A stretch of DNA of 64,000 nucleotides from Chytridium lagenaria (taxonomy: Eukaryota; Chytridiomycota; Chytridiomycetes; Chytridiales; Chytridiaceae): the NCBI GenBank assembly GCA_025449115.1, contig JAHLKC010000137.1, positions 49,371 to 113,370 on the forward strand, read 5' to 3'. Both the position numbers and the translations under genes were made by a program. Positions 29,346 through 63,110 of the stretch are shown here, piece by piece. Numbering within the stretch: the first letter of the stretch is position 1; each line of letters opens with the position of its first letter. Below the pieces are notes generated by a model, which was given only the letters and a program-made list of their open reading frames with translations, was not told the DNA's origin and ran no database searches.

Positions 29346-29525
29346 TGTCAGGTTAATGCCTACTACCTCCTTTATAGCACTATCAGTGTACTGAAGGGGT
29401 TAATGTAAATAAAAGTTTATTACATCATTAATATATATACCTTGTAACATGTAAATAAGAGTCGGATTACATGTTATTATAGGGGACGCGCCTATTTATA
29501 ATCTGCTGCCAGTCACGTGATGTGT
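29346..29525 (-). repeat. probable part of a copia LTR, split by the gypsy element
   Basis: Read on the minus strand this segment has a TATA-like TATAAATAGG (about 29489-29498), an AATAAA-type signal downstream and an end CCTGACA at 29346. Together with about 44 bp on the other side of the gypsy insertion (39030-39073, starting TGTTTTTACTCC after a G-rich tract) it would form a TG...CA LTR of about 225 bp. A copia RNase H remnant of the same orientation lies just beyond. No second copy of the LTR is available to prove it. Confidence 0.4.
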
Positions 29526-30012
29526 TGTGGTAGTATGAGTGGGTTTAGTGGAGGGACGTGTCAAAATGTGGTGGGAACGTGACGCGTTTGTATCCCGTCA
29601 TCACGTCTGATGACGGGATGAGCCGACGCTCATTTTCTCCCTTATATTTGACGCGTTTTTGTGTCTTTACGAGCTTTTTCTTTTCTTATGCCCCGTTTTC
29701 TTTCCTTTTTCTTTTACCCTGTAGCGTATTCACGCGTCTTACGCTCTCTTACTGGTGTTGCGGGGAGGGGAAGGGTGTCTTTCTTTTACCTTGTAGTACG
29801 TTTGCGCATTTTGTGCCTGGAGAGAGGACTGGACAGGAGGAAGACACGGTTTTCGTCTTACCATGAAGCTTAAAGACGGTGGTGGTGTCTTTGTTGAGGC
29901 TGGACGTGGCAGGGAAGGGAGGTGGTGGTCTTTGTAGGGAGGAAGTTAGAACAATAAAGCACAAAGTTGGGCTCCAAACTAGCAACTTACCTAGTGAAGC
30001 CAGACGACCACA
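29526..30012 (+). repeat. 5' LTR of the gypsy-like element
   Basis: 487 bp, TGTGG...CCACA. It contains a 12-bp-arm perfect hairpin at 29592-29619 and three ACGCGT hexamers, the core of the fungal MCB (Mbp1/MBF) site. It matches the 3' LTR throughout except for five homopolymers that are one base longer here. Confidence 0.95.
29592..29619. repeat. perfect 12-bp inverted repeat in the 5' LTR
   Basis: ATCCCGTCATCA and TGATGACGGGAT separated by CGTC. The arms contain TGACG-like half sites. The same hairpin is at 38614-38641 in the 3' LTR. Confidence 0.9.
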
Positions 30013-30014
30013 GT

Positions 30015-30036
30015 TGGTGGTTGCGTCCAGATCGAA
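30015..30036 (+). other. putative primer binding site
   Basis: Starts TGGTGGTTGCGTCC two bases after the 5' LTR. Its complement ends in CCA and contains a T-arm-like TTCGA at the expected distance to within one base, so it looks like the 3' end of a tRNA. I cannot name the tRNA. Confidence 0.6.
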
Positions 30037-30083
30037 TATTTGTTGAGTCTTCAAGGAGTTAAATACTCAAACCTTCTGCCGAC

Positions 30084-32051
30084 ATGTCCTTCCTATCGAA
30101 CCAGCTCTTCTATCCTCAGGGGATGCAGCAACCTTCCTTTCCAACTTTTAATGGTACGAATGAGCGAGTCTTTCGAGAGGAGCTCACCAGGTTCGTCTCA
30201 ATCCTGAAGTTGCAAGGGGCCCGTGTTACTGATGAAGCGTACATCACGTTTATCATCGAAAACTGCTTCCCTGAGGCAAAACATGTCAAGTCGTTAGTGT
30301 CGGACTGGAGGGATGCAGAAGTGGCGGCGAGTCGACAACTTACGTTCAAGGCTTTGTGCGAGTTCATTCAACGAACGTGGGAACACACCAATACGATAGC
30401 GTCAACAGATTCGTTCTATGAGCTCCGCAGAAGGTTCAAAGAGGCCCCCATTTCCAACCCGTGTTGGGATGGGTTGGTCACTAGCTTTGAATCTTTAAGG
30501 AGTCAGATGATCGTTAAGAAGACGGACGGGGAGTTGGTGATCTGGATCCTGTCGACGATGGATGAAATGATGAGGAGTGCGATCACAGAGGCAATTCACC
30601 GTGAACGTCACTCGTCAGCAGTCATTAACGGCATCAAAGAACAACTTCGTGCAGTCCAAGGCGGGTTTGACGACATTGCGACGTCGTCAGGGGGTACAGT
30701 CAAAGCAGTGTCCATTGCTGCCTTGGCTGACATTGCGGCGGACAAGTCGTCACCCCTCACCCTCAAGGAGATTTCCTCGGCTCTGCGTGAGTACCTTAAG
30801 GATGTTCGACCTGTGATGGGGTTTCAGATAGATACAGATGGGTCGACGGGTACGACTGTGAAAGAGGACCCGGCCGTTGTTGAGGCTTTCGGCCGATCCG
30901 TTCCGCCTCCACGGGTCTCCTTTGCGCGTCATCAGCCCCCGACTCACGCTTTCCAACCCATTCCTAAGACCCCACTCGTAACGGCTGTTGACCCTAGAGT
31001 AGACGATCTTGCTAAGCAGTTCGAAAACCTTAAGATTTACATCCAAAGCGCTATCAAACCGCCAAAGCAACCCATTGTCAAGGCTAAGGTTCCTCCAACG
31101 ACCAAGAAAGACATTCAGACAAGTGGCCTCCTCAACAGTGTGGACTCGCTGGCGGTTCAAGCAGGTCCCGGTATACGGTGCTACTACTGCGGTCTCCCAG
31201 GGCACTTCAAGGATCAGTGCGAGATCCTCACCAAAGATATCCTGGGAGGTGCAAAGGTTATGATCGGTCCTGACCGACGGCTGCATTGGGTGGTCCATGA
31301 TGAAGAAACGGGTGCCAGGAGGTTGGGAGAGGAAGTAAAGGGACATAGAGACGGGGCTCGTCATAACGTGATGGAGGTTGCAGATGACACGGCGTATTTG
31401 GCGGCTTTGGCAATGGTGGATCTGGATATAGTTATCGAATCATACACCTTGGATGTCACTGCAGAGCTGGTTTCACTCTCATCAACAATCCGCTGCAAGT
31501 CCCCGCCTGTACAAGGTGGAGAACTAGCAGCGACTGCTGTTGAGACGAAAACAGGTCCCGCAGCGACGCCCTCACCGCAAGCACCTCCAGGATCACCGAA
31601 ATACGTTTTAAAACCTTCCGACATCACGCCAGAGGAGGCCCTCAGGGTCGTCTCTTCTCTCTCCTTCGGCCTGGTCACCGACGGTATCCCAGTTTCCATG
31701 ATCGTTGAAGAAGTTTTGAAGGTCAGAGGGAAAGATACGGTTGACGGTTTTGTCAAGAGGGCGCGGGATTCAAAGGATGAAGGGAACCAGATCCCTCGAG
31801 TTGCCATTGACTGGCCACCTAAGCCTGGCATGGCAGTTGTTTATCCTCGAAAAATCGATGACTCCGTTAGGCCTACAAAGTCAGTTAATCCAGCAATCCT
31901 TCCTCCAGCGCCTTCTACGCGGTCGTCGGTGGGAACATTACCTTTAGAATCAGGAGCAGAGGGCAATGAAGACTACGGGGGCTCCTTTGTTGGGTGCAGG
32001 GAGAAAGGGGATAAGGAGTTGAGAGACGTTGAGGGGATAAAGGAAGGTTGA
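30084..32051 (+). CDS. gag-like protein with CCHC zinc knuckle
   Basis: A 655-residue structural protein. The N-terminal third is a capsid-like helical region (FNGTNERVFREELTRFVSIL, FIIENCFPEAKHVKSLVSDW, LTFKALCEFIQRTWEHTNTI). A single CCHC knuckle, CYYCGLPGHFKDQC, lies near residue 370. The C-terminal 250 residues are low-complexity with a helical patch (ITPEEALRVVSSLSFGLV). The stop overlaps the next ORF in the -1 frame. The change of frame falls in a G/A-rich stretch and may be a length error or a real frameshift. Confidence 0.8.
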   Translation: MSFLSNQLFYPQGMQQPSFPTFNGTNERVFREELTRFVSILKLQGARVTDEAYITFIIENCFPEAKHVKSLVSDWRDAEVAASRQLTFKALCEFIQRTWEHTNTIASTDSFYELRRRFKEAPISNPCWDGLVTSFESLRSQMIVKKTDGELVIWILSTMDEMMRSAITEAIHRERHSSAVINGIKEQLRAVQGGFDDIATSSGGTVKAVSIAALADIAADKSSPLTLKEISSALREYLKDVRPVMGFQIDTDGSTGTTVKEDPAVVEAFGRSVPPPRVSFARHQPPTHAFQPIPKTPLVTAVDPRVDDLAKQFENLKIYIQSAIKPPKQPIVKAKVPPTTKKDIQTSGLLNSVDSLAVQAGPGIRCYYCGLPGHFKDQCEILTKDILGGAKVMIGPDRRLHWVVHDEETGARRLGEEVKGHRDGARHNVMEVADDTAYLAALAMVDLDIVIESYTLDVTAELVSLSSTIRCKSPPVQGGELAATAVETKTGPAATPSPQAPPGSPKYVLKPSDITPEEALRVVSSLSFGLVTDGIPVSMIVEEVLKVRGKDTVDGFVKRARDSKDEGNQIPRVAIDWPPKPGMAVVYPRKIDDSVRPTKSVNPAILPPAPSTRSSVGTLPLESGAEGNEDYGGSFVGCREKGDKELRDVEGIKEG

Positions 32052-33349
32052 AAGCAGTCGACCCTGCCGAAAAGGTCGGGGATGAGGACGTTGTTGGAGG
32101 AAAAAGAATTGAGGGGAGTCCTGAGAAGAGGAGGGAGTTGGGGACAGAAGGTTTAGAATTTGGGGGTCAGGAGGGAGAGAAGAAGAAGAGAAAGAAGAAG
32201 AAAAAGGAAAGGAAGGAAGGGTCGGCGGTTGAAAATGGCGGAGAAAATAGTCTGGAAAGTGAGGTTGCGGGGCAGAGGGGTAAACAAGCGACAGTATTGA
32301 CACCGAAAACCCCTCAAGCTTCCCAACCGCCACCAAACCCCGACTACACTGTCCGCCGAGGTGTCCACCTGACTAACGAGGAGCTTCTCCACGTTATCGA
32401 TAGGCTTTTTAACCAACCAGTAGCGTCCTCACTTACTTGGGGCCAGTTTCTGGGGTTTTCACCTCGAGCCGTTCGAATGGTCATGGACCGAATTAAAGCC
32501 AAGCGATTCCCACTTTCCGGGGAAGAAAACATCGGTGAGGGAATGGATGTGGACGTAGGGTTGTCGGAGGCAATGGGTTCTAAGCCAGACCGATCTAGCG
32601 ATTTGTTCGATACCTTGTTAAGCACATTCCTGGACGAGGTGGACACGGACAAACTTATAAAAGTTCAACCGACCGTCAACGTTGAGTCTGTGGAATCCGT
32701 GGATTGTTGCTCCTTCCGTGTATCAGCCGATGACGTTTTGGATAGCTTTTCGGCGGACATCGCGGACGACGTTAGCGAGGCGGAAACCCTCGCTCCTGAG
32801 GAAGCGCGATGTAAAGTTGTTGCGGCCAGTCCCTCCCTCTATGACGTCAAGCTTGGGTTAGGGAAGAATACAGTTGTCCTCAACAAGGTCACAATTGATG
32901 GGGGGTCTCAAGTCATCACGGTTAGGCTCTCAGTCTACAAAAAGATTGGGGCTTCTGCGGGGATCGAGGAAGGTGCATCGATTAACATGAGAGGGGCCCA
33001 CGGCCATACTAGGAAGCTTGTGGGGCTCGTTCCCAGGCTCCCAGTTACAATCTTCGGCCTCACGTATTTCGTTCAGGCCTTCATCATCGACGACACCGTT
33101 GACCCCAAACCCCCTTTTGGACTCTTGCTGGGTCAACCGTTCATAGATTTAGCCCGTGCGGAGACAGTGTGGACAGAAGAAGGTGATCAGTGGACGCGTT
33201 TCCGCAGCCAGCAAGACCGCAACGTTATCCTGAAGGTTAAGACCGTGGACTCACGCGACAGGGACAATCAGTACAGCATGTCCAGCTTTAGACAAGCTCG
33301 TGCCGACCGTCCCCAAGCTTGGTCTCTTTACCGGGAGGATGATCAATAG
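32048..33349 (+). CDS. gag-pro continuation with retroviral-type aspartic protease
   Basis: A 433-codon open frame following gag in the -1 frame with no ATG at its start, so it is probably made as a gag fusion. A Lys/Glu-rich segment (32180-32220) is followed by a helical patch resembling the one at the end of gag. The C-terminal 150 residues look like a clan AA protease: NKVTIDGGSQVITVRLSVY (DGGS in place of the usual DSG/DTG) and PPFGLLLGQPFIDLARAE (LLGQPF, typical of LTR-element proteases). Confidence 0.7.
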   Translation: MKAVDPAEKVGDEDVVGGKRIEGSPEKRRELGTEGLEFGGQEGEKKKRKKKKKERKEGSAVENGGENSLESEVAGQRGKQATVLTPKTPQASQPPPNPDYTVRRGVHLTNEELLHVIDRLFNQPVASSLTWGQFLGFSPRAVRMVMDRIKAKRFPLSGEENIGEGMDVDVGLSEAMGSKPDRSSDLFDTLLSTFLDEVDTDKLIKVQPTVNVESVESVDCCSFRVSADDVLDSFSADIADDVSEAETLAPEEARCKVVAASPSLYDVKLGLGKNTVVLNKVTIDGGSQVITVRLSVYKKIGASAGIEEGASINMRGAHGHTRKLVGLVPRLPVTIFGLTYFVQAFIIDDTVDPKPPFGLLLGQPFIDLARAETVWTEEGDQWTRFRSQQDRNVILKVKTVDSRDRDNQYSMSSFRQARADRPQAWSLYREDDQ

Positions 33350-33764
33350 TTACCCTTACTTTTCATTTATTTTTCAATTCCTATTCATTTTTAGTTTCAG
33401 TCGTTTCTTTCTTATTCACACTTTACCCCCCCCATGTTGTCTCTGTAAACCGAAACTCCACTAGACTTTCCGATGTTTTTCGCGTTTATGTTAGTCTTAT
33501 CGCGTTATTCGGCTTATTATTTCTGTCCCGTACTATTCTTGGTCGTTGTCATGTTTTATTCTGTTGCTGTCTGCTTGGTGGTCTTGCAGATACAGCATCT
33601 TGTTGTCTTTTCTTTCCCGGTGTGTTTTTCCCCTGCTTTCTTTAGTTTTCGTGTTTGGTGGGCTTACTCGTTGGCTGAGGATCTTGCTTGGTTTTCATGC
33701 GGGTGTGTTTTCTTGTCTTTCCTCGGTGCTCGCTGTCTTTCTTCCCTTTTCCTTGTTCTGACTC
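33350..33764 (+). other. non-coding gap inside the gypsy element
   Basis: About 415 bp, T-rich, between the protease and RT frames, with stops in the frames that matter. It could be an intron (GTAAAC near 33446 and several pyrimidine-rich AG sites are available) or an internal promoter or leader for pol. I cannot decide. Confidence 0.4.
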
Positions 33765-35786
33765 TTGTGGCGGGAGTTTATAGGGGGGTCGGAGTTGTCA
33801 GTAGAAAATAAAGGTAGCAACGAAGAAAACACAAAAACAACGGAGCGGGCATCACAAAGGCGTCGACTTGAGCGAGAGCCAGGACCGGTCTGCGACGACG
33901 AGCGCCGCAACCGGGGACAAAGTCAGCCTGTAACGATGAGCTCTGATGGAATGTCGTTTGATGGGGCATTTAAGCAGGAAAGAGCGGAGGATGGAGAGTG
34001 GGTGAGGATGGACACTGAAGGGGTGGACATCTGTTCCTTCTCATCCACATCGAATAGCCACACTACAGAGGTCTCTCTAGAAGAGACTTACGAGGGGTTG
34101 GTTCGCGATGGTTGGGATGTTGCGTCATCATTAGTGGGAGGGAAGAAGCGGTTGATGAGGAGCCTGAGGAGGCAGGGTATCCTGGAGGAGGGAGAAACGA
34201 TAACAGCGATTGTCGCAGTGGATCACTCGATGGACACCTTTGCACTCCTCTCTATGGCTGCCCAACTTCTAACGGAAGGCTCCGTTAATCGTCCGCTGGA
34301 TTTTGAACTCCTGCTGTGGTGCATCGACGTTGCGGGTATCCAATGGCTTGAGCCGGAGGTAAACGTAATGACGATGTACAAGCCAGCATCTCGAAAGGTT
34401 CGACCAGTTGGAACGCCGCTACCTGGAGGGGTGGCTCCTACGTCTTGGGGTGGAGAGCTAGAAGAGGATGTCTTGAAGAGGCGAAGGGAGGGAATGACTG
34501 AGGAACGCGTCAACATTCTTTGCAGTGAAGCTGGTTGGCTTCAGCCCAGAGAACTTGATGCTCTCAAGGCCATGCTGCGTGAGGAAAGTGAAGCATTCTC
34601 GTTCAATCTTGCGGATAGGGGAAGGGTGAAAGCGGATGTTTGCGAGCCGGTCAAGGTCCATACGGTACCCCATTCACCATGGAAATACAGACCCCGCAAG
34701 ATCCCGTATGCGCAGCTTGAGAAGTTGGTCTCGTTCCTCAAAGAGAAACTCGAGGCCGGCATCATGGAGCCGTGCTTTGGATCTTACGCAGCGAATTTCT
34801 TTGTGGTGCCGAAGAAAGACGGTGGCATCCGCATGATACAAGATCTTCAACCCCTCAATGCAGTCACAATTCGGGATGCGGGGGTTCCACCCAGAGTAGA
34901 AGGAATAGTCAATGCGTATTCGGGGCTTTACATGGTGTCGCCTTTGGATTGCCACTCCTTTTACGACCAGTTTATTCTGGAGGTGGAGAGCCGCGACTTA
35001 ACGGCTATCGCGACGCCATTAGGCCTTATGCGCATGGTCACCTTGCCGATGGGATGGACAAACTCAGTTCCGGTCGCGCAGCGGGGATCTGTAAAAATCC
35101 TTCAGCCATTTATACCGAAGGACGTCGAACCTTACCTCGATGATTACGTTGTCAAGGGCCCAAAAGCAGCAGACGCTGATCATTCGGAGACCTGTATTGG
35201 TATTCGCCGTTTTGTTCAAGATCATCTGGACGTTTTGCGTGGAATTCTTCGGCGTATTCGAGCATCAGGAGTCACTCTTTCGGGTTTGAAGTCGAGGTTT
35301 TTCGCGGAGGCGTGTGAGGTTCTTGGTCACTGGGTTAGCCGACTAGGTCGTCAACCAAGCCCGTCTAAGGCAGTCAAACTCGCAAAGTGGGGTAATCTCA
35401 ACTCGGTTCAAGAAGTACGCGCGTTTCTTGGGCTCGCCACATTCTTTAGACGATACATCCCGCACTTCGCTTTGCGGGCTGATGCGCTCTATAGAATGCT
35501 CAGGAAAGGCGTGAAGTTTACGACAGAGGTTTGGGAGCTGGTGCAGGAGGCAAAGGCGGATTTGGCTGGGTCTCTGGCTGCACAACCGGTACTGAGAGCA
35601 ATTGACTACAGTGATGGGGCCGGGAGGATATACTTAGCTGTGGATGCTTCGCCTCTGGGTTGGGGTGCGTGGGTAGGGCAGGAGGGCAAGGCGGGGGGAG
35701 AAACGCGGTGTCATTCTTTTCAGGAAGGTTTAATGACACGGAAAAGCTATACGATCAACCGAAGAGGGAGGTTTTGGGTACCTTGA
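33765..35786 (+). CDS. gypsy pol, part 1: reverse transcriptase and start of RNase H
   Basis: RT of the Ty3/gypsy type. After a 200-residue low-complexity lead (first ATG about 33936) come VPHSPWKYRPRKIPYAQLEK, AANFFVVPKKDGGIRMIQDL, PLNAVTIRDAGVPPRVEGIV and the catalytic YLDDYVV at 35133. The thumb/connection region KSRFFAEACEVLGHWVSRLG and VRAFLGLATFFRRYIPHF follows. RNase H begins AVDASPLGWGAWVG. The frame ends shortly after a run of six G (35693-35698); one more base there would continue into the next frame. Confidence 0.85.
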   Translation: MWREFIGGSELSVENKGSNEENTKTTERASQRRRLEREPGPVCDDERRNRGQSQPVTMSSDGMSFDGAFKQERAEDGEWVRMDTEGVDICSFSSTSNSHTTEVSLEETYEGLVRDGWDVASSLVGGKKRLMRSLRRQGILEEGETITAIVAVDHSMDTFALLSMAAQLLTEGSVNRPLDFELLLWCIDVAGIQWLEPEVNVMTMYKPASRKVRPVGTPLPGGVAPTSWGGELEEDVLKRRREGMTEERVNILCSEAGWLQPRELDALKAMLREESEAFSFNLADRGRVKADVCEPVKVHTVPHSPWKYRPRKIPYAQLEKLVSFLKEKLEAGIMEPCFGSYAANFFVVPKKDGGIRMIQDLQPLNAVTIRDAGVPPRVEGIVNAYSGLYMVSPLDCHSFYDQFILEVESRDLTAIATPLGLMRMVTLPMGWTNSVPVAQRGSVKILQPFIPKDVEPYLDDYVVKGPKAADADHSETCIGIRRFVQDHLDVLRGILRRIRASGVTLSGLKSRFFAEACEVLGHWVSRLGRQPSPSKAVKLAKWGNLNSVQEVRAFLGLATFFRRYIPHFALRADALYRMLRKGVKFTTEVWELVQEAKADLAGSLAAQPVLRAIDYSDGAGRIYLAVDASPLGWGAWVGQEGKAGGETRCHSFQEGLMTRKSYTINRRGRFWVP

Positions 35787-37576
35787 GGGGGTTGAAGGCG
35801 GCCCATCAATATGTTTGGGGAGCAGACTTCGTGCTGGAAACGGATGCAAAGGCTCTTCTAGGATCCTTAAACCATGTTGAGACTTTGGATGCCACGCAGC
35901 AACGCTGGCTTCTAGCTATTCGGTCGTACCACGCCACGGTGCGCCATGTGAGCGGGAAAGCAAACGTTGTTGCCGACACTCTAAGTCGCCACAATCTCGA
36001 ACGAGGCTCATCCGACGATGGGGAAGCGGTGGAGGAACACGTTGACCGGGTCCTGGGTTTGGAACTGGTTCATCAACACCCCGTTTCTGTCATGAGTTGG
36101 AACGTCAACTCTACTCGCAATGCAGCAAAGAAGACACCCGGGTTTTCGAGTCTGGTTCTGGCCTATGACGTGATCCTCCTTCAAGAAACGCGTCAAGGAA
36201 GGTGTTCTTTTACCACCATCAAAGGTTTTGACTTCTCAACTTCACACGACGCATTCTGGATTGACTTTCCGGTCCAAGGTGGTGTGGGGTGGGGACGGAA
36301 CGGTGTAGCTATTGTGGTTAGGAAAGGACTTTTTGGTGATGAGGAGGGGGTGACGAGGGTGTGCTTTGATGGGTGGTCTGTCGAGGACATGGAAGGACGA
36401 TACCTCGAGGTTCACTTCAGAGATATAGTGCTCATTTCAGTATACTTCCCGGCAGCGGGAAGAGGTCGTGACCACCGGATTCCATACAAGATGGCGTTCT
36501 CTCGTGCAGCATCGGCCCGATTCGACGATTTGGAGCGCCAGGGAAAGACGCTAGTGATGGGTTGTGACTGGAATGTGTCCCAGACAAGCCTGGACGTTCA
36601 TCGATCCGCACTGGATCTCATTAATTCGGGATTTCGGGAGGAGGAGCGTGACTGGTTGGCACAACTGTGCTCACGCTTCACAGATGCTTTTCGGTCCCTG
36701 CATCCACGCGAGGTCTCGTACACCACGTGGTGGCATAATGATCGTCGCGGTAACGTGGGGTTCCGGTTTGATGGAGTACTGGTTTCTAGAGGGGTACACG
36801 TGCTGTCGGCGGTCCATCTAAGGGATGTTTGGGGGTCAGACCACATTCCAGTAGTGGCGGAGGTTTCCTTGGGGAAAGAGGCGGGGGTCTTTGTAGGGGT
36901 GGATAAGGTAGAAGAACCGCGGGTGGTGCTTCCCTGTCTCCAAGAGGCGATGGTGATGGAGGGACTGGACGTTGGTACGCGTCTGGGGCAAGTATTTTGG
37001 TTTCTCTGGACGGGTTCGGTACCGCCGAACGTGACGGGTCAATCTAAGTCGAGGGTGAAACGCCAGGCGTCGCTTTATTTCATAGCGGATAAGAAGCTGT
37101 TTCGGTACTCGTCTCGACATGGAGGGAACCCGTTGAGGGTTGTAGCGTCGGAGGAATGGCAGCGAGAGGTTGTACGTCAAGCGCATGAGGGGTTTGGAGG
37201 TGGCCACCGCAGTGTCTTTGGCACGGGCCAAAAGATACAGCGGAAATACTTTTGGGCCAACATGTGGTCAGACATACGGAGTTTCATCCGCACATGCGAC
37301 GCGTGTCAACGTCAAAATCCGGTACGATACATGGAGAAACTGGAGGAGCAGGAGGGGCGGTTAACAACGCTGTTTGGCACTTGGCACGTGGACCTAGTCA
37401 CGATGGAAGGAACCAAGAGATACTTGGCTCTTTTTATTGACGAGGTCTCAGGCTGGGTGGAAGGAGTGGTGTTGACGCGAAAAACTGGCTGCCCCGATTG
37501 TGAAGGCGATGGAGAGGGAAGTCTTTTCGCGGTTCGGGGTCCCGCAATTGGTTATTATAGATGGGGGAGAGCTTGA
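35660..37576 (+). CDS. gypsy pol, part 2: RNase H, EEP/AP-endonuclease domain, integrase N-terminal half
   Basis: One uninterrupted frame with three domains. RNase H: KREVLGTLRGLKAAHQYVWG, VLETDAKALLGSLN, VSGKANVVADTLSRH. The next domain (about 36085-36873) carries every hallmark of endonuclease/exonuclease/phosphatase enzymes: VMSWNVNS, VILLQETRQG, LISVYFPAAG, LVMGCDWNVS and SDHIPVV. Integrase then starts with an HHCC zinc finger (HEGFGGGHRS to CDACQRQ) and the first catalytic Asp in TWHVDLVTM. EEP nucleases normally belong to LINE elements. The frame leaves integrase at an A run (37480-37484) that is probably one base too long. Confidence 0.88.
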   Translation: MGCVGRAGGQGGGRNAVSFFSGRFNDTEKLYDQPKREVLGTLRGLKAAHQYVWGADFVLETDAKALLGSLNHVETLDATQQRWLLAIRSYHATVRHVSGKANVVADTLSRHNLERGSSDDGEAVEEHVDRVLGLELVHQHPVSVMSWNVNSTRNAAKKTPGFSSLVLAYDVILLQETRQGRCSFTTIKGFDFSTSHDAFWIDFPVQGGVGWGRNGVAIVVRKGLFGDEEGVTRVCFDGWSVEDMEGRYLEVHFRDIVLISVYFPAAGRGRDHRIPYKMAFSRAASARFDDLERQGKTLVMGCDWNVSQTSLDVHRSALDLINSGFREEERDWLAQLCSRFTDAFRSLHPREVSYTTWWHNDRRGNVGFRFDGVLVSRGVHVLSAVHLRDVWGSDHIPVVAEVSLGKEAGVFVGVDKVEEPRVVLPCLQEAMVMEGLDVGTRLGQVFWFLWTGSVPPNVTGQSKSRVKRQASLYFIADKKLFRYSSRHGGNPLRVVASEEWQREVVRQAHEGFGGGHRSVFGTGQKIQRKYFWANMWSDIRSFIRTCDACQRQNPVRYMEKLEEQEGRLTTLFGTWHVDLVTMEGTKRYLALFIDEVSGWVEGVVLTRKTGCPDCEGDGEGSLFAVRGPAIGYYRWGRA

Positions 37577-38330
37577 CGGGGGTGAGCTTCGCGAAGCAGC
37601 TTCAAGAATGGGTTACGACGTGGAGGTGACCATGGCTTATGGTCAGCAGGCGAATGGGTTGGTGGAGAGGGTGAATGTCCCAATTGTAGAGGCACTCGCC
37701 AAAGCCTGTGAGGGCCGTCACCAGTCTTATCACCTGCACCTCCATGCCGCCCTGTGGGCTGCGCGTATCACCGTCAGGCGCACAACGATGTACAAGCCTT
37801 ACGAGTTGTGTTTTGGACAGGAACCGGTCTTGCCAGTCGAGTTTGTCATTGAGTCTTTTGCTATCATTCAGTGGAGGCGGATGTCGACAGTGGAGCTGTT
37901 GGCAGCGCGTATTCGAATGATTCAGAGACGAGACTACGATATCGTCACGGCAAAGCACCGCATCCAGGAGGCACGTAAGAAAAGGGCCGAGCAGTTTAAC
38001 AAGGAACATCGCATCAGGCCGTCGTCAGAAGTAATTGAGGAAGGGGATCTTGTAGTCGTAAGGGACTCCGCTCTCGACCAGCAGATGGGGAGGAAGCTCA
38101 GGTGGCGATACTATGGGCCATTCTGGGTTCGAGAGAAGGGACTTAACGCCTATTGGTTGGCAGAGATGGACGGCGCGCACATCAGCAAGGCAGTGCAAGG
38201 TGCGCGGGTTCGGCTTTATCGAAGAAGGGATGACGAGGAGGGGGTGTTTCCTGTGGCGTTGTTGGATGAGGAAGAGGATGAGCGCGACGAAGAGGTGGCT
38301 GCGGAGTACATCGGTCTCTCTCTTTGGTGA
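37500..38330 (+). CDS. gypsy pol, part 3: integrase core and C-terminal region
   Basis: Continues the integrase core from the previous frame: FSRFGVPQLVIIDGG (second Asp), then NGLVERVNVPIVEALAKAC (catalytic Glu). It is followed by the C-terminal region with KPYELCFGQEPVLPVEF, IEEGDLVVVRDSALDQQMGR and RYYGPFWVREKG, which resembles the GPY/F module. Thus D,D,E are all present across the two frames. No chromodomain is seen. The stop is at 38328-38330. Confidence 0.85.
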   Translation: MKAMEREVFSRFGVPQLVIIDGGELDGGELREAASRMGYDVEVTMAYGQQANGLVERVNVPIVEALAKACEGRHQSYHLHLHAALWAARITVRRTTMYKPYELCFGQEPVLPVEFVIESFAIIQWRRMSTVELLAARIRMIQRRDYDIVTAKHRIQEARKKRAEQFNKEHRIRPSSEVIEEGDLVVVRDSALDQQMGRKLRWRYYGPFWVREKGLNAYWLAEMDGAHISKAVQGARVRLYRRRDDEEGVFPVALLDEEEDERDEEVAAEYIGLSLW

Positions 38331-38547
38331 TATCGCGCCAAACGATCATTAAGTTACGGCACTTTAGACAGCCGCGAAAGCCCTAGGCGAGCCTGAGCGA
38401 TATACGGGTCCCCAGCTACCGTCGTGGTTTGGGGTTAAAACATTAGCGTCTCTGAATAGTAGGAGAGGCCTGAGTGCGGGTCGCGGAAGCACTTCTTCTG
38501 GTGGGGTATCCAATGAGGGCATTGGACCTGAGGGTGGGTTCATCAGT

Positions 38548-39029
38548 TGTGGTAGTATGAGTGGGTTTAGTGGAGGGACGTGTCAAAATGTGGTGGGAAC
38601 GTGACGCGTTTGTATCCCGTCATCACGTCTGATGACGGGATGAGCCGACGCTCATTTTCTCCCTTATATTTGACGCGTTTTGTGTCTTTACGAGCTTTTT
38701 CTTTTCTTATGCCCGTTTTCTTTCCTTTTTCTTTTACCCTGTAGCGTATTCACGCGTCTTACGCTCTCTTACTGGTGTTGCGGGGAGGGGAAGGGTGTCT
38801 TTCTTTACCTTGTAGTACGTTTGCGCATTTTGTGCCTGGAGAGAGGACTGGACAGGAGGAAGACACGGTTTTCGTCTTACCATGAAGCTTAAAGACGGTG
38901 GTGGTGTCTTTGTTGAGGCTGGACGTGGCAGGGAAGGAGGTGGTGGTCTTTGTAGGGAGGAAGTTAGAACAATAAAGCACAAAGTTGGGCTCCAAACTAG
39001 CAACTTACCTAGTGAAGCAGACGACCACA
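38548..39029 (+). repeat. 3' LTR of the gypsy-like element
   Basis: 482 bp, same termini as the 5' LTR. It has no substitutions relative to it and is one base shorter in five homopolymers (T5/T4, C4/C3, T4/T3, G3/G2, C2/C1). It is followed by GTGT, matching the four bases before the 5' LTR. Confidence 0.95.
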
Positions 39030-39579
39030 GTGTGATGCAGGATAGGCCATTATAATGGTGCAGTGGAGTAAAAACAACCCCCCCCTACTCCAGTGCAGAA
39101 ATGAAGGCCAAGAGATTAAACGAGATAGTGATGATCAGCAGATTTTCAAGGCCTTAGTGAGGAGATCTGCAAGAATGAGCTTGGAGGACAATAAGACATC
39201 ATCAACTCCTTGCTCGCGAGCGTTTGCAAAGAAAGTGGTGTCAAATATTGATGTGCTTGACACAATTATGATCACGAGGATTTTTAGCCACGGCGGTAAG
39301 ACCTTGATTGTCACCGTAAAGTTGGGTGGCCTGGAAACATCTTGACCAAGGTGTTGAACCAGAGATCGTTGTGTAAAATTCTCCCTTTGGCCCTCTACTA
39401 TTCAAGCCTTGACCATAGTAGAGAGAGAGTTCGCTGTGCCATGCCACCATCCATGTTGTATGTTGTATAAGGTGGAATTGCGGTAGCAGCTTCTCTTTTG
39501 CTGAGGCAAGAATTTGTTGCGCTGTACAGCTCTGCTGTTCTTGCGAGGTTTTATCATAGAAAAGGAAGGACAATAACAA
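39030..39579 (-). pseudogene. Ty1/copia pol remnant (RNase H end)
   Basis: On the minus strand QLYGDNQGLTAVAKNPRDHN and VKHINI, followed near 39150 by LLTKALK in a shifted frame, match the end of copia RNase H (LYGDNQGA...KHIDI...D..TK.L). Frames are broken and upstream RT is not recognisable. A G-rich tract on this strand (39074-39085) could be its polypurine tract, placing the copia LTR at the gypsy insertion site. Confidence 0.65.
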
Positions 39580-40221: not shown

Positions 40222-40931
40222 CTATGAGCTACAAGTACGTACGCACTTATGCCTGTTCAGTGGAGTTGCTTCATAAGTCCACAAACGTCTGAATAGCTCT
40301 CGGTTCACATCTTCAGTTATTTTCATCTTTGGCCGTCGTTGGACGACAGCAAACTTCTTCCAAAGTTCTATTTCTTGTGCAAAGTCATTGTTAATACGTT
40401 TGCATGCTGCATCAGCAGAATCCGTTGGAGGTAAGATATGATAGGGACAGAGCCTGGCAGCGTTAGCTTGCCTAGACAATAACCTACCATCTGGTAGTAC
40501 TTGAACAATAGTATATTGGTTATAATTAGCGGACCTTGCAATGACGCGCATAGGACCAACCGACAGAATAGGAATTTCTTTATCTGAGCATCTATACGGC
40601 TCTGTTTCTCAGTGTGTAAGGGCATCAATGACCACACACAATCACCACTATCAAACTTTAAAGTATAGGTCTTTTTATGTGATTGCACAGTCTCAACACA
40701 GTCAAATTTTTTCTTAAGTAGCCGTTCTCTAGCATAACTAAGTGGCGCTGGTAGTTCAACAGCATAATCACTAATTTTCTGAGACTGGTTTTTCAGGAAA
40801 TCAGCTATAACTTTAGGCTGCTTCTTATAAGGCTTACTAGCGGAGTCAACTTCAGATTGTTGAGTTCTCGTGTTGGTCATATGCAATACAACAGAACACT
40901 TTATCATTAATAGTTTTTTTCTGCTGTTCAT
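40222..40931 (-). pseudogene. retroelement integrase C-terminal remnant
   Basis: Two overlapping frames. The upstream one has YARERLLKKKFDCVETVQSH and LKFDSGDCVWSLMPLHTEKQ, which resembles the spacer and DxVW/L motif after an integrase core. The downstream one continues MRVIARSANYNQYTIVQVLP and LSRQANAARLCPYHI, similar to the GPF-type end of gypsy-like integrases. No core or RT is nearby, so it is a broken relic. The element type is not certain. Confidence 0.45.
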
Positions 40932-41683
40932 CCACTGAACAAGTACGTTGTCAAGCTATGAGAGATGAGAAATGTTCATATACTCTCATAAGATGTACAG
41001 ATAGAACAGAAAACTATAATCCTCTGCCTTCACGTTCCTTACCCCACCTTGCAATTGAAGTCTACTTAGTCATCTAAGGGTTATAAAGTTGTTAGGGTCG
41101 CAGGAAGGTACAATAGATAATAGAGGAGATCTAGTAGCTTGTCACTCTAACAACAAATCGTTCTATCAGTATGTATTGTGTTGTATTGTCTAAATGGACC
41201 TGTACTCCTTCATTCCTATCCAGATTAGGAATATTACATTGAAGGAATTTTGTTTGCCTTCTTGGAAATAGCCCTTCAGATCCTTTCACATCACTTTCCC
41301 TTCAACTCAGCTATAAACGTTAGTGTTTTTCCATAGTGGAAGTGCACTTCAACCCTGCTCTCTCTGCAGTCGTACCTTCCTCTCCTATCTATCAATGTAT
41401 TAGACATAACCTCTTACACCTGTCTCTGAACGACAGTCCACCTTGAACTCAAAGTTAACACAATGTTAATCCGATAGACAAGCTAAGTATCTTTTATTGA
41501 TATTAAACTATGGGCCTGATTCCTGATTCCAGCATTCATCAAGAAATCCGCTCTCTGCACATCCCAAATCCATCAATCCGGGTGATCTGCACCTATTCTC
41601 CTGAATCTGATGACCATCCACGCTGATACCACTTGCTTGATCAAACCACACTACACTACACTGCATTTCTGCAGCCCTACTGT
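40932..41683. other. gene-poor region
   Basis: About 750 bp with no gene or clear repeat seen. Confidence 0.45.
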
Positions 41684-49895: not shown

Positions 49896-51286
49896 CTACA
49901 AGAGCCGAAGGGTCGTAGGCGATGACGGAAAGGAAAAACCGAAGAAGAATGAAGGAGAAAAGAAGGAAAAGGGACTTAGAAAGGAAAGGAGGAGAGAAGA
50001 GAGAAAAAGAAAAATTGATCGCGCAAATGGAGACGAAAACGCGTAGAGATGGGAGACGAAACGCGTTTTGAAGTCGGGAGGGACAGTTAATCCTCGGGAG
50101 GTATATCTGAAGCTTGAATTTCCGGAAAAGTCCTTGTGGAGGACTAGTTGTTGAGAGAGGAGTTTGACGTCTGCCTTGATTCTATCACGCAGTTCTTGGT
50201 CGAATGGAAGCCATGTGTTGTATATTGGTGAGTGGTTTTGCCATTTGATGAGTGCTTGTCGTTGTCCTCGACCGCGGAGTGTCTTGAGAGTACGGAGGGC
50301 GAGGAGGCGTTCAACGGATCTCTCTGCTTGAGGAAGTGACGATAGAGGGTGAGGACCGTCAGTGTCCCAGTAATAAGGACGCAGTTTTTCAGGATGGATC
50401 ACCGGATGGATACCCCAGGATTGAGGGAGCTCGAGCCCGATAGGATGTGCCGACGCGTTCAATGATCTTGTAGGGACCGGTGTACACGGGGCCGAGCTTT
50501 TGAGGGTCGATCTCGAGCATTCGGTGGAAGAACGTCTTGGCGTGAAGAAGAACGAGGTCGCCAATGTGAAAAGGGTCTTCCAGTCGTCGGATTTGCTTGC
50601 TCGGCTTGCCTGTCTTGAGCGTCTTGGATGGCGATTTTGGCTTTGGAGTACCAGGTCCTAAGGTTGCGGAGCGGCATGGGGTCCATGGGCGTCAAGAGAG
50701 ATCGAGGAGAGAGCGTGGATGGCGTCCGGTGTCGAGCAAAAGGTGTGTAACCTGTTGAGGCGTTCATGGTGTCGTTTATGGCGTGTTCGACGATGTGTAG
50801 GTACTGATCCCAATCGTTTTGATAGAAGTGAACGAACTCGCGGAGAGCTTGAATGATCCACTGGTTCTTATTTTCAGTCTGGCCGTCGGTTTGAGTGGTA
50901 AGAGGAGGAGATAGTCTGCTTGACTCGAGAGACTTCATCAGCGCGTTCCAGAAGTCACTGATGAATTTTGAGTCTCGATCGCTGATAATATGCTTGGGGA
51001 GGCCGTGATGTCGCCATACAGTTCGTAGGAAGAGTTCGGCGATGTCCTGAGCGGTGGATGTCGTGTTTGTTGCAGCGATGTGAACGCGTTTTGAAGCGGA
51101 GTCAACGACGACCATAATGTAATCGAGTTTTGTGTCGAGAGTGGTTGGCATGGGGCCCATGAAGTCGATCGAGACGGTTTCCCAGCGATGTTCGGGGGCG
51201 TTGTGTGGCTCCAACAAGCCGTATGGGAGGTGACGCGCGACCTTGTTGCGTTGGCAGGAGTCGCAGAACTTGACGTATCGTTTCAC
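49896..51286 (-). pseudogene. chromovirus integrase and chromodomain (two frames)
   Basis: Zinc finger HHDVKRYVKFCDSCQRNK, core with VSIDFMGPMPTTLDTKLDYI (first Asp), DRDSKF (second Asp) and TDGQTENKN (Glu). Then FHIGDLVLLHAKTFF and LGPVYTGPYKII (GPY/F module), and after a frame change a chromodomain: VERLLALRTLKTLRGRGQ and ALIKWQNHSPIYNTWLPFDQ. Chromodomains of this kind guide insertion to modified chromatin. The break lies at about 50460-50560. Confidence 0.85.
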
Positions 51287-53085
51287 ATCATGATGGAGTC
51301 GTGGCCAGTGATAATTCCGGGAGATTCTTTCCGACGTTCGTTCCCAGTTGTTATGGATGACTGGTCCTTCGTTGTGAGCAAGACGTATGAGTCGTTGACG
51401 GATGGTGAGGGGACGTAAAGCCGAAGGTCGTTCCCAGCCGTGTAGTAAAGAAGTCCTCGGCTGAGAAAGTAGCGCAACACCGCCGTCTTCAGATGCTTTG
51501 GGATCTTGAGTTGGCGAAAATCGGCCTTGGGGTTTACGTTGTCGTCAAGATAGGTGTTGATGTCTTTGAAGAACTCATCCGTTGGTAGGGCGTTCTTGAT
51601 GTCGTCTAGAATGTCATTGGTGATGGTCGAAAGGGAATTCAACGAGATGTGAGGATCGGTGGCGGCGTCCTTGGCATGTGGTCGTCTGGAGAGAGCGTCA
51701 GCGATGGTGTTCCAGTTTCCTGGCGTCCATTCTATGACGAAGTCTTGGGCAAGGAGGTCTGCCAGCCATCGATGGTGGACGGGACGGAGCTTGGGTTGAT
51801 CCAGGATGTATTGAAGGGAGCGATGATCCGTGAACACCTTGACCTGTCGCCCCGTGATGTAGTGACGGTGAGTTCTGAAGGCTTCAACCAGGGCGAGGAT
51901 CTCTCCGAGATATGGATGATACTTGCGTTCGCTGACGTTGCATTTTCTTGACGCGTAGGCAATGGGTACTTCGTGTCCCTCGTCATCAGGTTGGGCGACG
52001 TAACTGCCGACGGCTGATTCGGACCAGTCGGTGTAGAGATGAACGGGTCTTGTTGGATCGAAGAGACTGAGGACTTGAGGGGAGATGAGAGCTCTTTTGA
52101 CCTTCTCGAAGACCGCTTGACTTGCTGGAGACCAGATGAAGGGAGCGGGGCGTTTCTTGTTTCCGGCACCTCTTAGGAGTTCAGTCAGAGGGGCGAGAAG
52201 ACTGGCGTGTCGAGAGATGAATCGATGAATCGTGTTTGCGAGACCTATGAAGGAGCGGAGTTCTGTCCAGGAGGTAGGGGATTCGAAATCTTGAATAGCC
52301 TTAACTCGTGATGGAAGAACCTCTAGGTGACCGCGAGAAACGTGGAATCCTAGGTATTCGACTTCGGAAGTGAAGAAGGCGCACTTGTGAAGGCGGCAAT
52401 GAAGTTGGTGTTCCTGAAGTCGGGCCAAGACTTTGCGTAAGTGTTCTTCATGTTCCTCCTGTGTTTCTGAGAATACCAAGATGTCGTCCATGTAGGCGAT
52501 GAGGAACTCGTCGACGTAGTCTTGAAAGATGCTATTGACCATTGACTGGAAGGTGGCTGGGGCGTTTGCGAGACCGAAAGGCATAACGACCCATTCAAAG
52601 TGGCCGTACTTAGTGCGAAAGGCAGTCTTGTGGGTATCTTCAGGGGTGATGCGAATTTGATGATATCCAGAAGCGAGGTCGAGCTTTGAGAAATACTTTG
52701 CCTTACGAAGCCTGTCGAGGATCTCGGTGATGTTTGGGAGCGCCGTTCTGTTCTTGACTGTATTCTTGTTGAGGGCGCGGTAATCGATGACCAACCTAAG
52801 TTTGCCGGCCTGAGCGATGTAGAAGATAGGAGCGCCGTATGCGAGGATGATGGCTTGATTCTCCCATTGTCGAGGAGAAACTCGAGCTCTTTCTTGAGGG
52901 ATGCGAGTTCTTCTTCTGAGAGAGGGTAGATGGGGCGATGCGGGGGCTTTGCCGTGGAATCCTCGAGCTCGATCTTGTGATTGAAAGACGTGAAGGAGGA
53001 GTGCCAATGTATTCCGAGAAGACGGTGGGGAATTCCTTGACCATTGCTTTGATATTGTCTGGGAGGTTGGCGAGAACCTGAGCAT
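51283..53085 (-). pseudogene. chromovirus reverse transcriptase and RNase H
   Basis: RT: GKLRLVIDYRALNKNTVKN, FSKLDLASGYHQIRI, FGLANAPATFQSMVN and the catalytic IAYMDDILVFS; RNase H: DWSESAVGSYVAQ, EILALVEAF, FTDHRSLQYIL, ADALSRRPH. The N-terminal about 70 codons of this frame are out of frame. The real upstream RT sequence (KPPHRPIYPLSEEELASLKK) lies in another frame, so at least two one-base changes separate protease from RT. Confidence 0.85.
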
Positions 53086-54634: not shown

Positions 54635-54719
54635 GTTAGGGTTAGGGGTTAGGGTTAGGGGTGAAGTTAGGGTTAGGGTTAGGGTTAGGGTTAGGGGTAG
54701 AGTTAGGGGTAGGGTTAGG
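54635..54719 (+). repeat. interstitial telomeric repeats, G-rich strand on +
   Basis: About a dozen TTAGGG units with variants (TTAGGGG, a GTGAAG interruption, AGAGTTAGGGG). The G-rich strand runs 5' to 3' towards the right, as at a right-hand chromosome end. It joins the truncated chromovirus gag directly on the left and the 3' end of a Penelope-like element on the right. Confidence 0.95.
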
Positions 54720-54915
54720 TGGGGAGGAGTGTAGACTATGGTAAACCGATTAAGAACCTTCTTTGGTGGAAGTAAGGCTCAAGCTTAGGAGGAAGAGGGT
54801 TTTCTTAGGTTTTGGGTTTTAGAGTTTGGGTTTTAGAGTTAGGGTGGAAGGAGTTCTCTAAGTGTGGAAGGTGGCCAGGGTGTTTTGTTGGTCAGTCAAA
54901 CAAAGGTTTATTGCC

Positions 54916-54952
54916 GCAGGACGTTTCGGGTTTGTGGACCCTCTTCAGCTAC
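54916..54952 (-). ncRNA. hammerhead ribozyme, copy A
   Basis: Read 5' to 3' on the minus strand: stem I GUAG, core CUGAAGA (consensus CUGANGA), stem II GGGU-loop CCACAA-ACCC, core GAA, stem III ACGU, cleavage base C, then stem I CUGC closing with GUAG (one G-U). All invariant core positions are present. Stem III is the self-complementary ACGU, typical of minimal type I motifs in retroelements that act as dimers. Predicted cleavage lies between 54920 and 54919. Confidence 0.85.
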
Positions 54953-55284
54953 AAAACAGATATAAGAATAACGAACAAAACAACAAACTGCAAACCTTCA
55001 ACAGTAAACGAGTAACCAAAAGGTGGAGATGATTACATTGGATGAAGAAGAGAAAACAAGTGCTATAAGACAGTATTTATAGCAAAAATAAAACCAAACT
55101 CAAAATACAGTAAAGAAGAATCGATTAGAAATCATTTCAAAGCCCAACATGATTAGAAATGATTAAAAATGCTTAACAATCAAAAACTTATAACTAAGTG
55201 GAGGAATGCTTACAAATGATTAAAAATAATTTGTAATCTTAGAAAAAGTAAAAGATGAAAAGTAAACTAAACGAATCACGTGAC

Positions 55285-55365
55285 TAACGCGTCTTGCACG
55301 CGTCAGACACGGTAACTGTAGCCCAAAGAATTAAAAACGCGTAAAAAACGTGAAAAAACGCGTGA
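55285..55365. promoter_or_regulatory. cluster of four ACGCGT boxes around the RT stop codon
   Basis: ACGCGT at 55287, 55298, 55337 and 55358, plus a CACGTG at about 55278. ACGCGT is the MCB core bound by MBF at S-phase genes in fungi. The same cluster occurs in the other two copies. A regulatory role is inferred only. Confidence 0.35.
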
Positions 55366-57919: not shown

Positions 57920-58567
57920 AGTCGGCGAGGCGCTTGTTGTAGGAGTTGATGAAGAGGATGGTGCGAGGGTTTTCCGTCGAGTGTCTCCAGATGACTTCTT
58001 TAAAGACGTCCGGGGCCATTGGCGGTTCCGTTTCAGGGTCGCTGATCCAGGTGAGAATGCGTCCCTGTTGGAGTATTTCCAGTTCCTTGATGAGGGTGGA
58101 GTAGACGGTAGCGTATGTTCTATTCAAGCGGATGTACTGTGCAGTTTCTTTCGCGAGTAGGAGCTGAACCGTGTCTCTTTTGGCCCTTCGCAGGAATTCC
58201 ACTTTGTCGTCTTCAGGAAGGGTGATTCCATGAAGTTTGATCTGAAGTCCAGGTGGGAACACGTCCGCGAGGTAGTCTTGGGCGAGTTTCTGGATGCGAT
58301 CGTGGTGATTCCTCCTTGCTGAGAAAAGTCTGGCGGCCGAATCGCTGGCTTTCTCTATGAGTTTCTTCTCCGTGTCCAGCAGAGGTATGTTCTTGAATGC
58401 GTATTTGGCAAGTGCATGAAGGTGTCTTCATCGTTGATCGCGTTCAGCTCTGGGTGTGTAAGGACGAAGAAGAGGTGTTGGTTGTTCTCAATCAAGGCGT
58501 CGTAGTCGAGGGGCTCATCAAGAGGGTAGGGGAAGGTCACGGGTATGGGGGCAGGAACGTGATCCAT
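57657..58567 (-). CDS. PLE ORF1, copy A
   Basis: Starts MDHVPAPIPVTFPYPLDEP at 58567, only 28 nt from the element end. The first about 55 codons (to TFMHLPN) continue, after a -1 frame change near 58425, as ALAKYAFKNIPLLDTEKKLI and RRNHHDRIQKLAQDYLADVF. The second part has FLRRAKRDTVQLLLAKETAQ and a Lys-rich coiled-coil-like tail (RVKEKKLEHQRKKKEASEKK). No known domain; it could be an RNA-binding or structural protein. It ends at 57657 here but runs on into the RT overlap in copy B. Confidence 0.7.
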
Positions 58568-58595
58568 GGTGTTTGCTCGGGAGTCCACGGGATGG

Positions 58596-58606
58596 TTAGG
58601 GTTAGG
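58596..58606 (+). repeat. telomeric repeat linker between copies A and B
   Basis: TTAGGGTTAGG, not quite two units, joining the 5' end of copy A to the 3' end of copy B. Confidence 0.9.
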
Positions 58607-58802
58607 TGGGGAGGAGTGTAGACTATGGTAAACCGATTAAGAACCTTCTTTGGTGGAAGTAAGGCTCAAGCTTAGGAGGAAGAGGGTTTTCTTAGGTTTT
58701 GGGTTTTAGAGTTTGGGTTTTAGAGTTAGGGTGGAAGGAGTTCTCTAAGTGTGGAAGGTGGCCAGGGTGTTTTGTTGGTCAGTCAAACAAAGGTTTATTG
58801 CC

Positions 58803-58839
58803 GCAGGACGTTTCGGGTTTGTGGACCCTCTTCAGCTAC
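58803..58839 (-). ncRNA. hammerhead ribozyme, copy B
   Basis: Sequence identical to the copy A motif over all 37 positions. Predicted cleavage lies between 58807 and 58806. Confidence 0.85.
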
Positions 58840-59219
58840 AAAACAGATATAAGAATAACGAACAAAACAACAAACTGCAAACCTTCAACAGTAAACGAGT
58901 AACCAAAAGGTGGAGATGATTACATTGGATGAAGAAGAGAAAACAAGTGCTATAAGACAGTATTTATAGCAAAAATAAAACCAAACTCAAAATACAGTAA
59001 AGAAGAATCGATTAGAAATCATTTCAAAGCCCAACATGATTAGAAATGATTAAAAATGCTTAACAATCAAAAACTTATAACTAAGTGGAGGAATGCTTAC
59101 AAATGATTAAAAATAATTTGTAATCTTAGAAAAAGTAAAAGATGAAAAGTAAACTAAACGAATCACGTGACTAACGCGTCCTGCACGCGTCAGACACGGT
59201 AACTGTAGACCCAAAAGAA

Positions 59220-62457: not shown

Positions 62458-62485
62458 GGTGTTTGCTCGGGAGTCCACGGGATGG

Positions 62486-62496
62486 TTAGGGTTAGG
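62486..62496 (+). repeat. telomeric repeat linker between copies B and C
   Basis: TTAGGGTTAGG, identical to the linker between A and B. Confidence 0.9.
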
Positions 62497-62692
62497 TGGG
62501 GAGGAGTGTAGACTATGGTAAACCGATTAAGAACCTTCTTTGGTGGAAGTAAGGCTCAAGCTTAGGAGGAAGAGGGTTTTCTTAGGTTTTGGGTTTTAGA
62601 GTTTGGGTTTTAGAGTTAGGGTGGAAGGAGTTCTCTAAGTGTGGAAGGTGGCCAGGGTGTTTTGTTGGTCAGTCAAACAAAGGTTTATTGCC

Positions 62693-62729
62693 GCAGGACG
62701 TTTCGGGTTTGTGGACCCTCTTCAGCTAC
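62693..62729 (-). ncRNA. hammerhead ribozyme, copy C
   Basis: Same 37-nt motif as copies A and B. Predicted cleavage lies between 62697 and 62696. Confidence 0.85.
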
Positions 62730-63110
62730 AAAACAGATATAAGAATAACGAACAAAACAACAAACTGCAAACCTTCAACAGTAAACGAGTAACCAAAAGG
62801 TGGAGATGATTACATTGGATGAAGAAGAGAAAACAAGTGCTATAAGACAGTATTTATAGCAAAAATAAAACCAAAACTCAAAATACAGTAAAGAAGAATC
62901 GATTAGAAATCATTTCAAAGCCCAACATGATTAGAAATGATTAAAAATGCTTAACAATCAAAAACTTATAACTAAGTGGAGGAATGCTTACAAATGATTA
63001 AAAATAATTTGTAATCTTAGAAAAAGTAGAAGATGAAAAGTAAACTAAACGAATCACGTGACTAACGCGTCTTGCACGCGTCAGACACGGTAACTGTAGT
63101 CCCAAAAGAA

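What the first reader, a model, noticed from the sequence alone, without database searches (positions are those of the whole stretch)
35660..37576. LTR retrotransposon whose pol carries a LINE-type AP-endonuclease (EEP) domain between RNase H and integrase
Seen: one uninterrupted frame runs from RNase H (KANVVADTLSRH) through a segment with all EEP catalytic signatures (SWNVNS, LLQET, SVYFP, CDWNVS, SDHIPVV) into an HHCC integrase finger and the first integrase Asp; the second Asp and Glu follow in the next frame. Known: EEP/APE endonucleases serve target-primed transposition of non-LTR elements, whereas Ty3/gypsy elements use integrase. I know of no LTR element with both, but I have not searched. 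Inference: the element may nick DNA independently of integrase, or use the EEP fold for RNA, lipid or phosphate chemistry, or for trimming cDNA ends. The kept catalytic residues and the recent insertion argue that the domain is useful to the element.
Basis: partly seen in the sequence, partly recalled or inferred. Interest (0 to 1): 0.92.

Follow-up and report, generated by a model that had tools for sequence, protein, structure and literature searches.

The report
Repair-type nuclease inside fungal LTR retrotransposons
Many LTR retrotransposons in this (probably chytrid) fungal genome carry, between their RNase H and integrase, a nuclease domain of the DNA-repair kind (exonuclease III/APE1), not the kind used by LINEs; two separate lineages have it in the same slot, which suggests that it helps them make or repair their DNA copies.

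The parts
29522..29525 (.). target-site duplication GTGT, left copy (right copy 39030-39033)
29526..30012 (+). 5' LTR (487 bp, TGTGG...CCACA)
   Evidence: 0 substitutions and 5 one-base gaps against the 3' LTR
30018..30030 (+). probable primer binding site TGGTTGCGTCCAG, 5 nt after the LTR; its 10-mer core TTGCGTCCAG also follows the LTR in C115, C94, C63, C158
   Evidence: complementarity to a tRNA not tested
30063..32051 (+). gag-like ORF with a weak zinc knuckle
   Evidence: Pfam zf-CCHC E 0.0059, below its cut-off
32033..33349 (+). ORF at the place of the protease; no Pfam protease match
   Evidence: protease role by position only
33762..35786 (+). ORF with reverse transcriptase (RVT_1 at 34806-35333, E 5e-11)
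35615..37576 (+). open frame RNase H - EEP - integrase finger - start of integrase core
35645..35929 (+). RNase H (PF17917)
   Evidence: E 2.6e-12
36083..36874 (+). exonuclease III/APE1-type EEP domain
37154..37321 (+). integrase H2C2 zinc finger
   Evidence: E 7e-17
37476..38330 (+). rest of the integrase core and C-terminal part, in the next frame
   Evidence: aligns with the corresponding stretch of relatives; no Pfam integrase match of its own at E 0.1
38530..38538 (+). purine run GAGGGTGGG, probable polypurine tract, 9 nt before the 3' LTR
   Evidence: inference
38548..39029 (+). 3' LTR (482 bp)

Best explanation
The window holds a recent copy of a Ty3-type LTR retrotransposon whose pol carries an exonuclease III/APE1-type nuclease domain between RNase H and integrase (shown). 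Many elements of this genome, in two lineages, have the same order (shown). Integrase still does the insertion (indicated by target duplications of about 4 bp at eight of nine sites). The nuclease is made as part of Gag-Pol and works on the element's own DNA copy before or during integration: it cuts at abasic sites and cleans blocked or damaged 3' ends, so that the cDNA can be completed and joined (inferred). In position and purpose it would resemble the dUTPase that non-primate lentiviruses carry between RNase H and integrase. I hold the architecture and family at about 0.97, and the DNA-repair role on cDNA at about 0.5.
For: Domain order in one frame. In C198 one frame of 2573 aa holds RT, RNase H, EEP, H2C2 and rve (Pfam on the 2013 aa that I hold, scanned in two pieces). 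Bimodal RH-IN gap: 30 of 31 long gaps have an EEP, 0 of 24 short ones; the 31st, C13, has a decayed EEP match. ExoIII/APE1 family by NCBIfam cut-off, PDB sequence profile (ExoIII-type up to 163 bits, APE1 about 133, LINE-1 EN about 54) and fold. Catalytic Glu, Tyr, Asp-x-Asn, Asp and Asp-His invariant in 6 of 6 sequences of A1, the other five being 29-33% identical to the window's (these five are all group II). dN/dS: window-C95b EEP 0.09 and 0.05 in two pieces, window-C94 EEP piece 0.09, C324-C234 EEP 0.04; integrase 0.05, RT 0.03, RNase H 0.10 and 0.10. EEP in the same slot in two RT lineages. Insertions with about 4-bp TSD. Retroviral precedent for a DNA-integrity enzyme in this slot (passages of PMC4531489).
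Against: No activity data. At least 24 elements of the same genome (C160a among them), and C194, the sister of the window's group, do without the domain. ExoIII-type enzymes have several activities, so the family does not fix the substrate. No dUTPase or other repair domain was seen beside it (one weak dUTPase match in the genome), so a wider repair kit is not indicated. Ten of 18 dN/dS comparisons had saturated silent sites and give no ratio, and most of the other eight have dS above 1. One group II insertion (C95a) does not look like ordinary integrase work.
Confidence: 0.5

Rival explanations
1. The domain is a 3'-5' exonuclease or RNase H-like activity that trims the cDNA ends or removes the tRNA and polypurine primers, giving integrase the right CA-3' ends.
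For: ExoIII-type fold. In the window's group the LTR-PBS spacing is 4-5 nt and the purine run-LTR spacing is 9-10 nt and conserved, against 2 nt and 0 nt in the EEP-less element C222, so longer ends would need trimming.
Against: Group II element C95a has the EEP but its purine run GCGGAGAA abuts the LTR (0 nt) and its probable PBS lies 1-3 nt off (read by eye), so long ends do not go with the EEP in general. PBS and polypurine tract were assigned by eye; few elements examined.
Confidence: 0.2
2. The domain nicks target DNA, as the APE-type endonuclease of LINEs does, giving a second, integrase-independent way in.
For: Shared EEP superfamily; one group II insertion (C95a) has a target duplication of about 210 bp and lacks about 9 nt of its 5' LTR.
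Against: Duplications of about 4 bp at the window and C11 copies and at six LTR insertions of the C95a family (C50, C33 and a T-run at C39 by script; C206, C159 and, with one extra T, C15 by eye); ExoIII/APE1 rather than LINE type. C95a is 1 of 9 sites examined.
Confidence: 0.07
3. The domain acts in trans on host factors or on RNA (for example against silencing), not on cDNA.
Against: Catalytic positions are kept and the sequence falls in the DNA-repair family above its curated cut-off.
Confidence: 0.12
4. The domain is a passive spacer or passenger picked up by chance.
For: Elements without it are common in the same genome.
Against: dN/dS 0.04-0.09, like RT and integrase, and presence in the same slot in two RT lineages; in group II the EEP is kept better (73% amino-acid identity) than the neighbouring linker (57%; C198-C234).
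Confidence: 0.06

Closest known systems
Ty3/Gypsy (Metaviridae) LTR retrotransposons
   Same: LTRs with TG..CA ends, RT-RNase H-integrase order, H2C2 finger and integrase core, 4-bp TSD
   Different: an ExoIII-type domain of about 265 aa between RNase H and integrase; group II also has about 390 aa of unknown sequence before it
Exonuclease III / APE1 family (TIGR00633 xth)
   Same: sequence above the curated cut-off, fold, catalytic residues
   Different: part of a retrotransposon polyprotein; forms two groups apart from the bacterial, plant and host APE sequences used
APE-type endonuclease of LINEs
   Same: EEP superfamily, found in a retroelement
   Different: different EEP branch, different place (after RNase H, not before RT), and integrase rather than target-primed insertion
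dUTPase of non-primate lentiviruses (PMC4531489, passages)
   Same: DNA-integrity enzyme placed between RNase H and integrase in pol
   Different: unrelated fold and reaction
DEDDy exonuclease ORF3 of bdelloid LTR elements Juno/Vesta (PMC5408684, passages) and DNMT in a charophyte Gypsy pol (PMC5890265, passages)
   Same: captured nucleic-acid enzyme in an LTR element
   Different: other enzyme families; in the rotifers it is a separate ORF3
Kuafuorterviruses (PMC11673190, one passage)
   Same: Exo_endo_phos mentioned in some animal LTR elements
   Different: described as sporadic and perhaps host-derived; position not given in the passage seen

Membership tests
Ty3/Gypsy LTR retrotransposon | two LTRs with TG...CA ends and short TSD | tested here: met
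   TG..CA, TSD GTGT; C11 copy CATC
Ty3/Gypsy LTR retrotransposon | RT before RNase H before integrase (H2C2 + rve) | tested here: met
   window; rve only weak; C198: rve 1e-12; with the EEP in between
Ty3/Gypsy LTR retrotransposon | RT groups with known Ty3 RTs | tested here: inconclusive
   group II sits among Ty3-type references; the window's group is on a long branch of its own with C194
Exonuclease III/APE1 (TIGR00633) | score above the curated cut-off 99.05 | tested here: met
   window 131.5, C198 134.4, C95a 153.9, C76 160.4, P0058 137.2 (5 of 5 tested); below the cut-off of the narrower TIGR00195 (5 of 5)
Exonuclease III/APE1 (TIGR00633) | catalytic residues (which positions are catalytic in APE1/ExoIII is recalled) | tested here: met
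Exonuclease III/APE1 (TIGR00633) | fold | tested here: met
   the alignment given to AlphaFold2 held ExoIII homologues, so this is not independent of the sequence result
Exonuclease III/APE1 (TIGR00633) | AP-endonuclease or 3'-exonuclease activity | not testable with these tools
   needs purified protein
LINE APE-type endonuclease | EEP before a LINE-type RT | tested here: not met
   EEP lies after a Ty3-type RT and RNase H and before an integrase finger
LINE APE-type endonuclease | groups with LINE endonucleases by sequence | tested here: not met
   LINE-1 EN about 54 bits against up to 163 for ExoIII-type; six presumed LINE EEPs of the same genome apart with 100/99, but the program warns of long branches, and that the six are LINEs was not confirmed by a downstream RT
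LINE APE-type endonuclease | target-primed insertion (variable TSD, no LTR) | tested here: not met
   LTRs and 4-bp TSD; C95a is an odd case in another lineage
Lentiviral dUTPase | dUTPase homology | tested here: not met
   no dUTPase match at E 0.1 in the frame; only the slot is shared

The most novel reading that the evidence does not exclude
LTR retrotransposons have at least twice taken up a base-excision-repair endonuclease into the same slot of pol, between RNase H and integrase, and use it to keep their cDNA fit for integration: a repair enzyme carried by the element itself, in a clade found across chytrid fungi.
Probability: 0.4. Interest if true: 0.85.

Novelty: new variant of a known kind. 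Interest (0 to 1): 0.77.

Why it matters
It adds a conserved DNA-repair-type nuclease to the enzymes an LTR element can carry, recurs in two lineages, and makes a question testable: whether abasic sites or 3' ends of cDNA limit retrotransposition in these hosts. It also warns that Pfam Exo_endo_phos hits cannot be taken as a mark of LINEs in fungal annotation.

Tried and rejected
Private insertion or chimera: rejected; 29 elements besides the window's copy have RH, EEP and integrase finger in this order, and 46 of 84 finger matches have an EEP within 2.5 kb upstream. LINE origin: rejected. The comparison with EEPs of the same genome is weaker: they have no integrase finger downstream, but their LINE nature was not confirmed. 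Pfam PF14529 does not settle it: 4 of 5 scanned pass its cut-off, but it is also precomputed for bacterial ExoIII. One RT clade of all EEP-bearing elements: rejected (AU p 0.000238; the 16 rows included C115a, whose EEP I could not see, and C13, whose EEP is decayed; the window's RT is stood for by the identical C11 row). One origin of the EEP itself: neither shown nor rejected (support 48/20). Long cDNA-end trimming: suggested by group I, not by group II. Long target duplication as a rule: rejected, one case only. dUTPase partner: one weak match in the genome; one search was wasted on a wrong accession (PF22042, EF-G_D2). RT rows under 150 aa (C160a, C5, C355) were dropped before the tree.

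Wider distribution: (EEP-IN query of the window, 7994 candidates scored) gave 5 hits, four of them with a DNA ligase domain set beside the EEP; (RH-EEP-IN of C198) gave 52 hits, none listing PF03372, among them animal, plant and mushroom Ty3 pols; (EEP profile; best 120 of 6482 listed) put Irineochytrium annulatum P0058 first (E 1.6e-72), Phlyctochytrium bullatum P0060 third (1.3e-42), the rest bacterial ExoIII or unnamed. No other chytrid genome could be searched directly. That the window is from a chytrid is inference from these two hits.

Papers: ten searches of open-access PMC text (one search was for dUTPase; searches found nothing; one search listed 20 of 112, most not opened). In the listings and passages seen I met no description of RNase H-EEP-integrase order; subscription papers are not held. 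Papers opened, in passages only: PMC5890265, PMC10799480, PMC11673190, PMC5055719, PMC3248453, PMC5408684, PMC8775202, PMC3158057, PMC9926174, PMC4112212, PMC4531489, PMC3441728, PMC8392823. PMC3248453 mentions complex fungal LTR elements with extra domains, put down to multiple insertions; its Figure S1 was not seen.
Full report
OBSERVATION. The frame 35615-37576 is open for 653 codons. Pfam finds RNase H, Exo_endo_phos over its whole length, the H2C2 integrase finger and, weakly, the start of the rve core, in this order. The element is bounded by LTRs 29526-30012 and 38548-39029 with no substitutions between them and a TSD GTGT. A second copy on contig C11 is 99.7% identical over 9,515 bp, with its own TSD CATC.

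NOT A PRIVATE INSERTION. The window's assembly (41.9 Mb, 356 contigs) was searched. Relatives on C95, C115, C94, C63 and C158 (59-80% identical in the EEP pieces) all have RNase H, EEP and integrase matches in that order. I then took the matches of the RNase H (85), H2C2 (84) and Exo_endo_phos (105) families and of the window's EEP (61) (lower bounds, since only best candidates are scored). Of the 84 H2C2 matches, 55 have an RNase H upstream within 9 kb on the same strand. In 24 the gap is 289-545 bp and none has an EEP within 2.5 kb upstream; in 31 it is 1,318 bp or more and 30 have one, the window and C11 copies among them; the remaining one, C13, shows a decayed EEP match. One of the 31 gaps is 7.4 kb (C109). 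In all, 46 of 84 H2C2 matches have an EEP within 2.5 kb upstream. In C198 a single frame of 2573 aa, and in C95a one of 1604 aa, holds RT, RNase H, EEP, H2C2 and rve; I read 2013 aa of the C198 frame and 765 aa of the C95a frame, and Pfam confirms the domains on these.

SELECTION. Of 18 codon comparisons, 8 gave a ratio: EEP 0.04-0.09 (four comparisons), integrase 0.05, RT 0.03, RNase H 0.10 (two). The other 10 are saturated at silent sites. In C198 against C234 the EEP is 73% identical, the linker after it 57%, the integrase finger and start of the core 87%.

TWO LINEAGES. In the RT tree the EEP-bearing elements fall into two groups: group I (C11, whose RT is identical to the window's, C95b, C63, C158), with EEP-less C194 as sister, and group II (C198 and others), next to an EEP-less reference (P0006, 95/92); one clade is rejected (AU p 0.000238). 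C160a, too short for the tree, resembles C194 and also lacks the EEP; aligned with the window, both share the sequence around ...EEHVD... just before the EEP and resume before the finger. The two EEP groups could be sisters or not (48/20). So the module entered the slot at least twice, or moved between lineages, or was lost repeatedly, which would need many losses among Ty3 elements. P0058 and P0060 from two chytrid genera group with the group II EEPs (100/99), so group II is probably not confined to this species; whether they sit in full elements there was not seen.

HOW IT WORKS. Target duplications at the two group I copies (GTGT, CATC) and at six group II-type LTR insertions are about 4 bp (C50 ATAT, C33 TCTA and a run of 5 T at C39 by script; C206 GTAT, C159 CATG and C15 AAGT plus one T by eye). 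C50 is a full-size pair; the C206, C39 and C33 pairs are short and probably non-autonomous; C159 and C15 were taken as solo LTRs. One insertion, C95a, has a duplication of about 210 bp and a short 5' end, and is the exception among nine sites. Hence integrase inserts these elements and the EEP is not the target cutter as a rule. What remains is work on the cDNA. An AP-endonuclease/3'-cleaning role fits the family, the selection on the domain and the lentiviral dUTPase parallel (passages). End trimming was tested on anatomy: group I has long LTR-PBS and purine run-LTR spacings, but the group II element looked at does not, so it is not general.

LIMITS. No enzyme assay; no other chytrid genome at hand; literature limited to open-access text; some frame breaks in the window may be sequencing errors; EEP status of C115a in the RT tree was assumed; LINE nature of the comparison EEPs not confirmed.

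Noticed in passing
window 51239-52842, - strand (C137:100609-102212): A second Ty3-type element without EEP (RH-H2C2 gap 423 bp), 95% identical in RT to C312.
   Followed up: partly
window 40222-40955, - strand: ORFs resembling the stretch after the integrase of the group II element C95a (read by eye): probably a group II remnant.
   Followed up: no
window 54707-63401: Two to three tandem copies of a unit of about 3.89 kb, 89-100% identical in the 300-nt samples compared.
   Followed up: no
L078 1862-2077 and L010 1808-2024 (C95): Group II element C95a sits inside group I element C95b with about 210 bp of target duplicated and about 9 nt of its 5' LTR missing; not the rule for the family.
   Followed up: partly
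C198 frame, residues about 897-1280 (L041/L062): About 390 aa between RNase H and EEP in group II, no Pfam match at E 0.01 in the piece scanned, partly shared with C95a (24% over 96 columns).
   Followed up: partly
window 29526-39029 against L009: Near-identical copies differ by 18 gap openings but 5 substitutions, as with homopolymer sequencing errors; frame breaks in gag, RT/RNase H and integrase may be partly artefacts.
   Followed up: partly
window 30013-30017 and 38539-38547: Group I has unusual spacing of PBS (4-5 nt) and purine run (9-10 nt, TTCATCAG conserved) from the LTRs.
   Followed up: partly
window 33350-33761: T-rich stretch between the protease-place ORF and the RT ORF.
   Followed up: no
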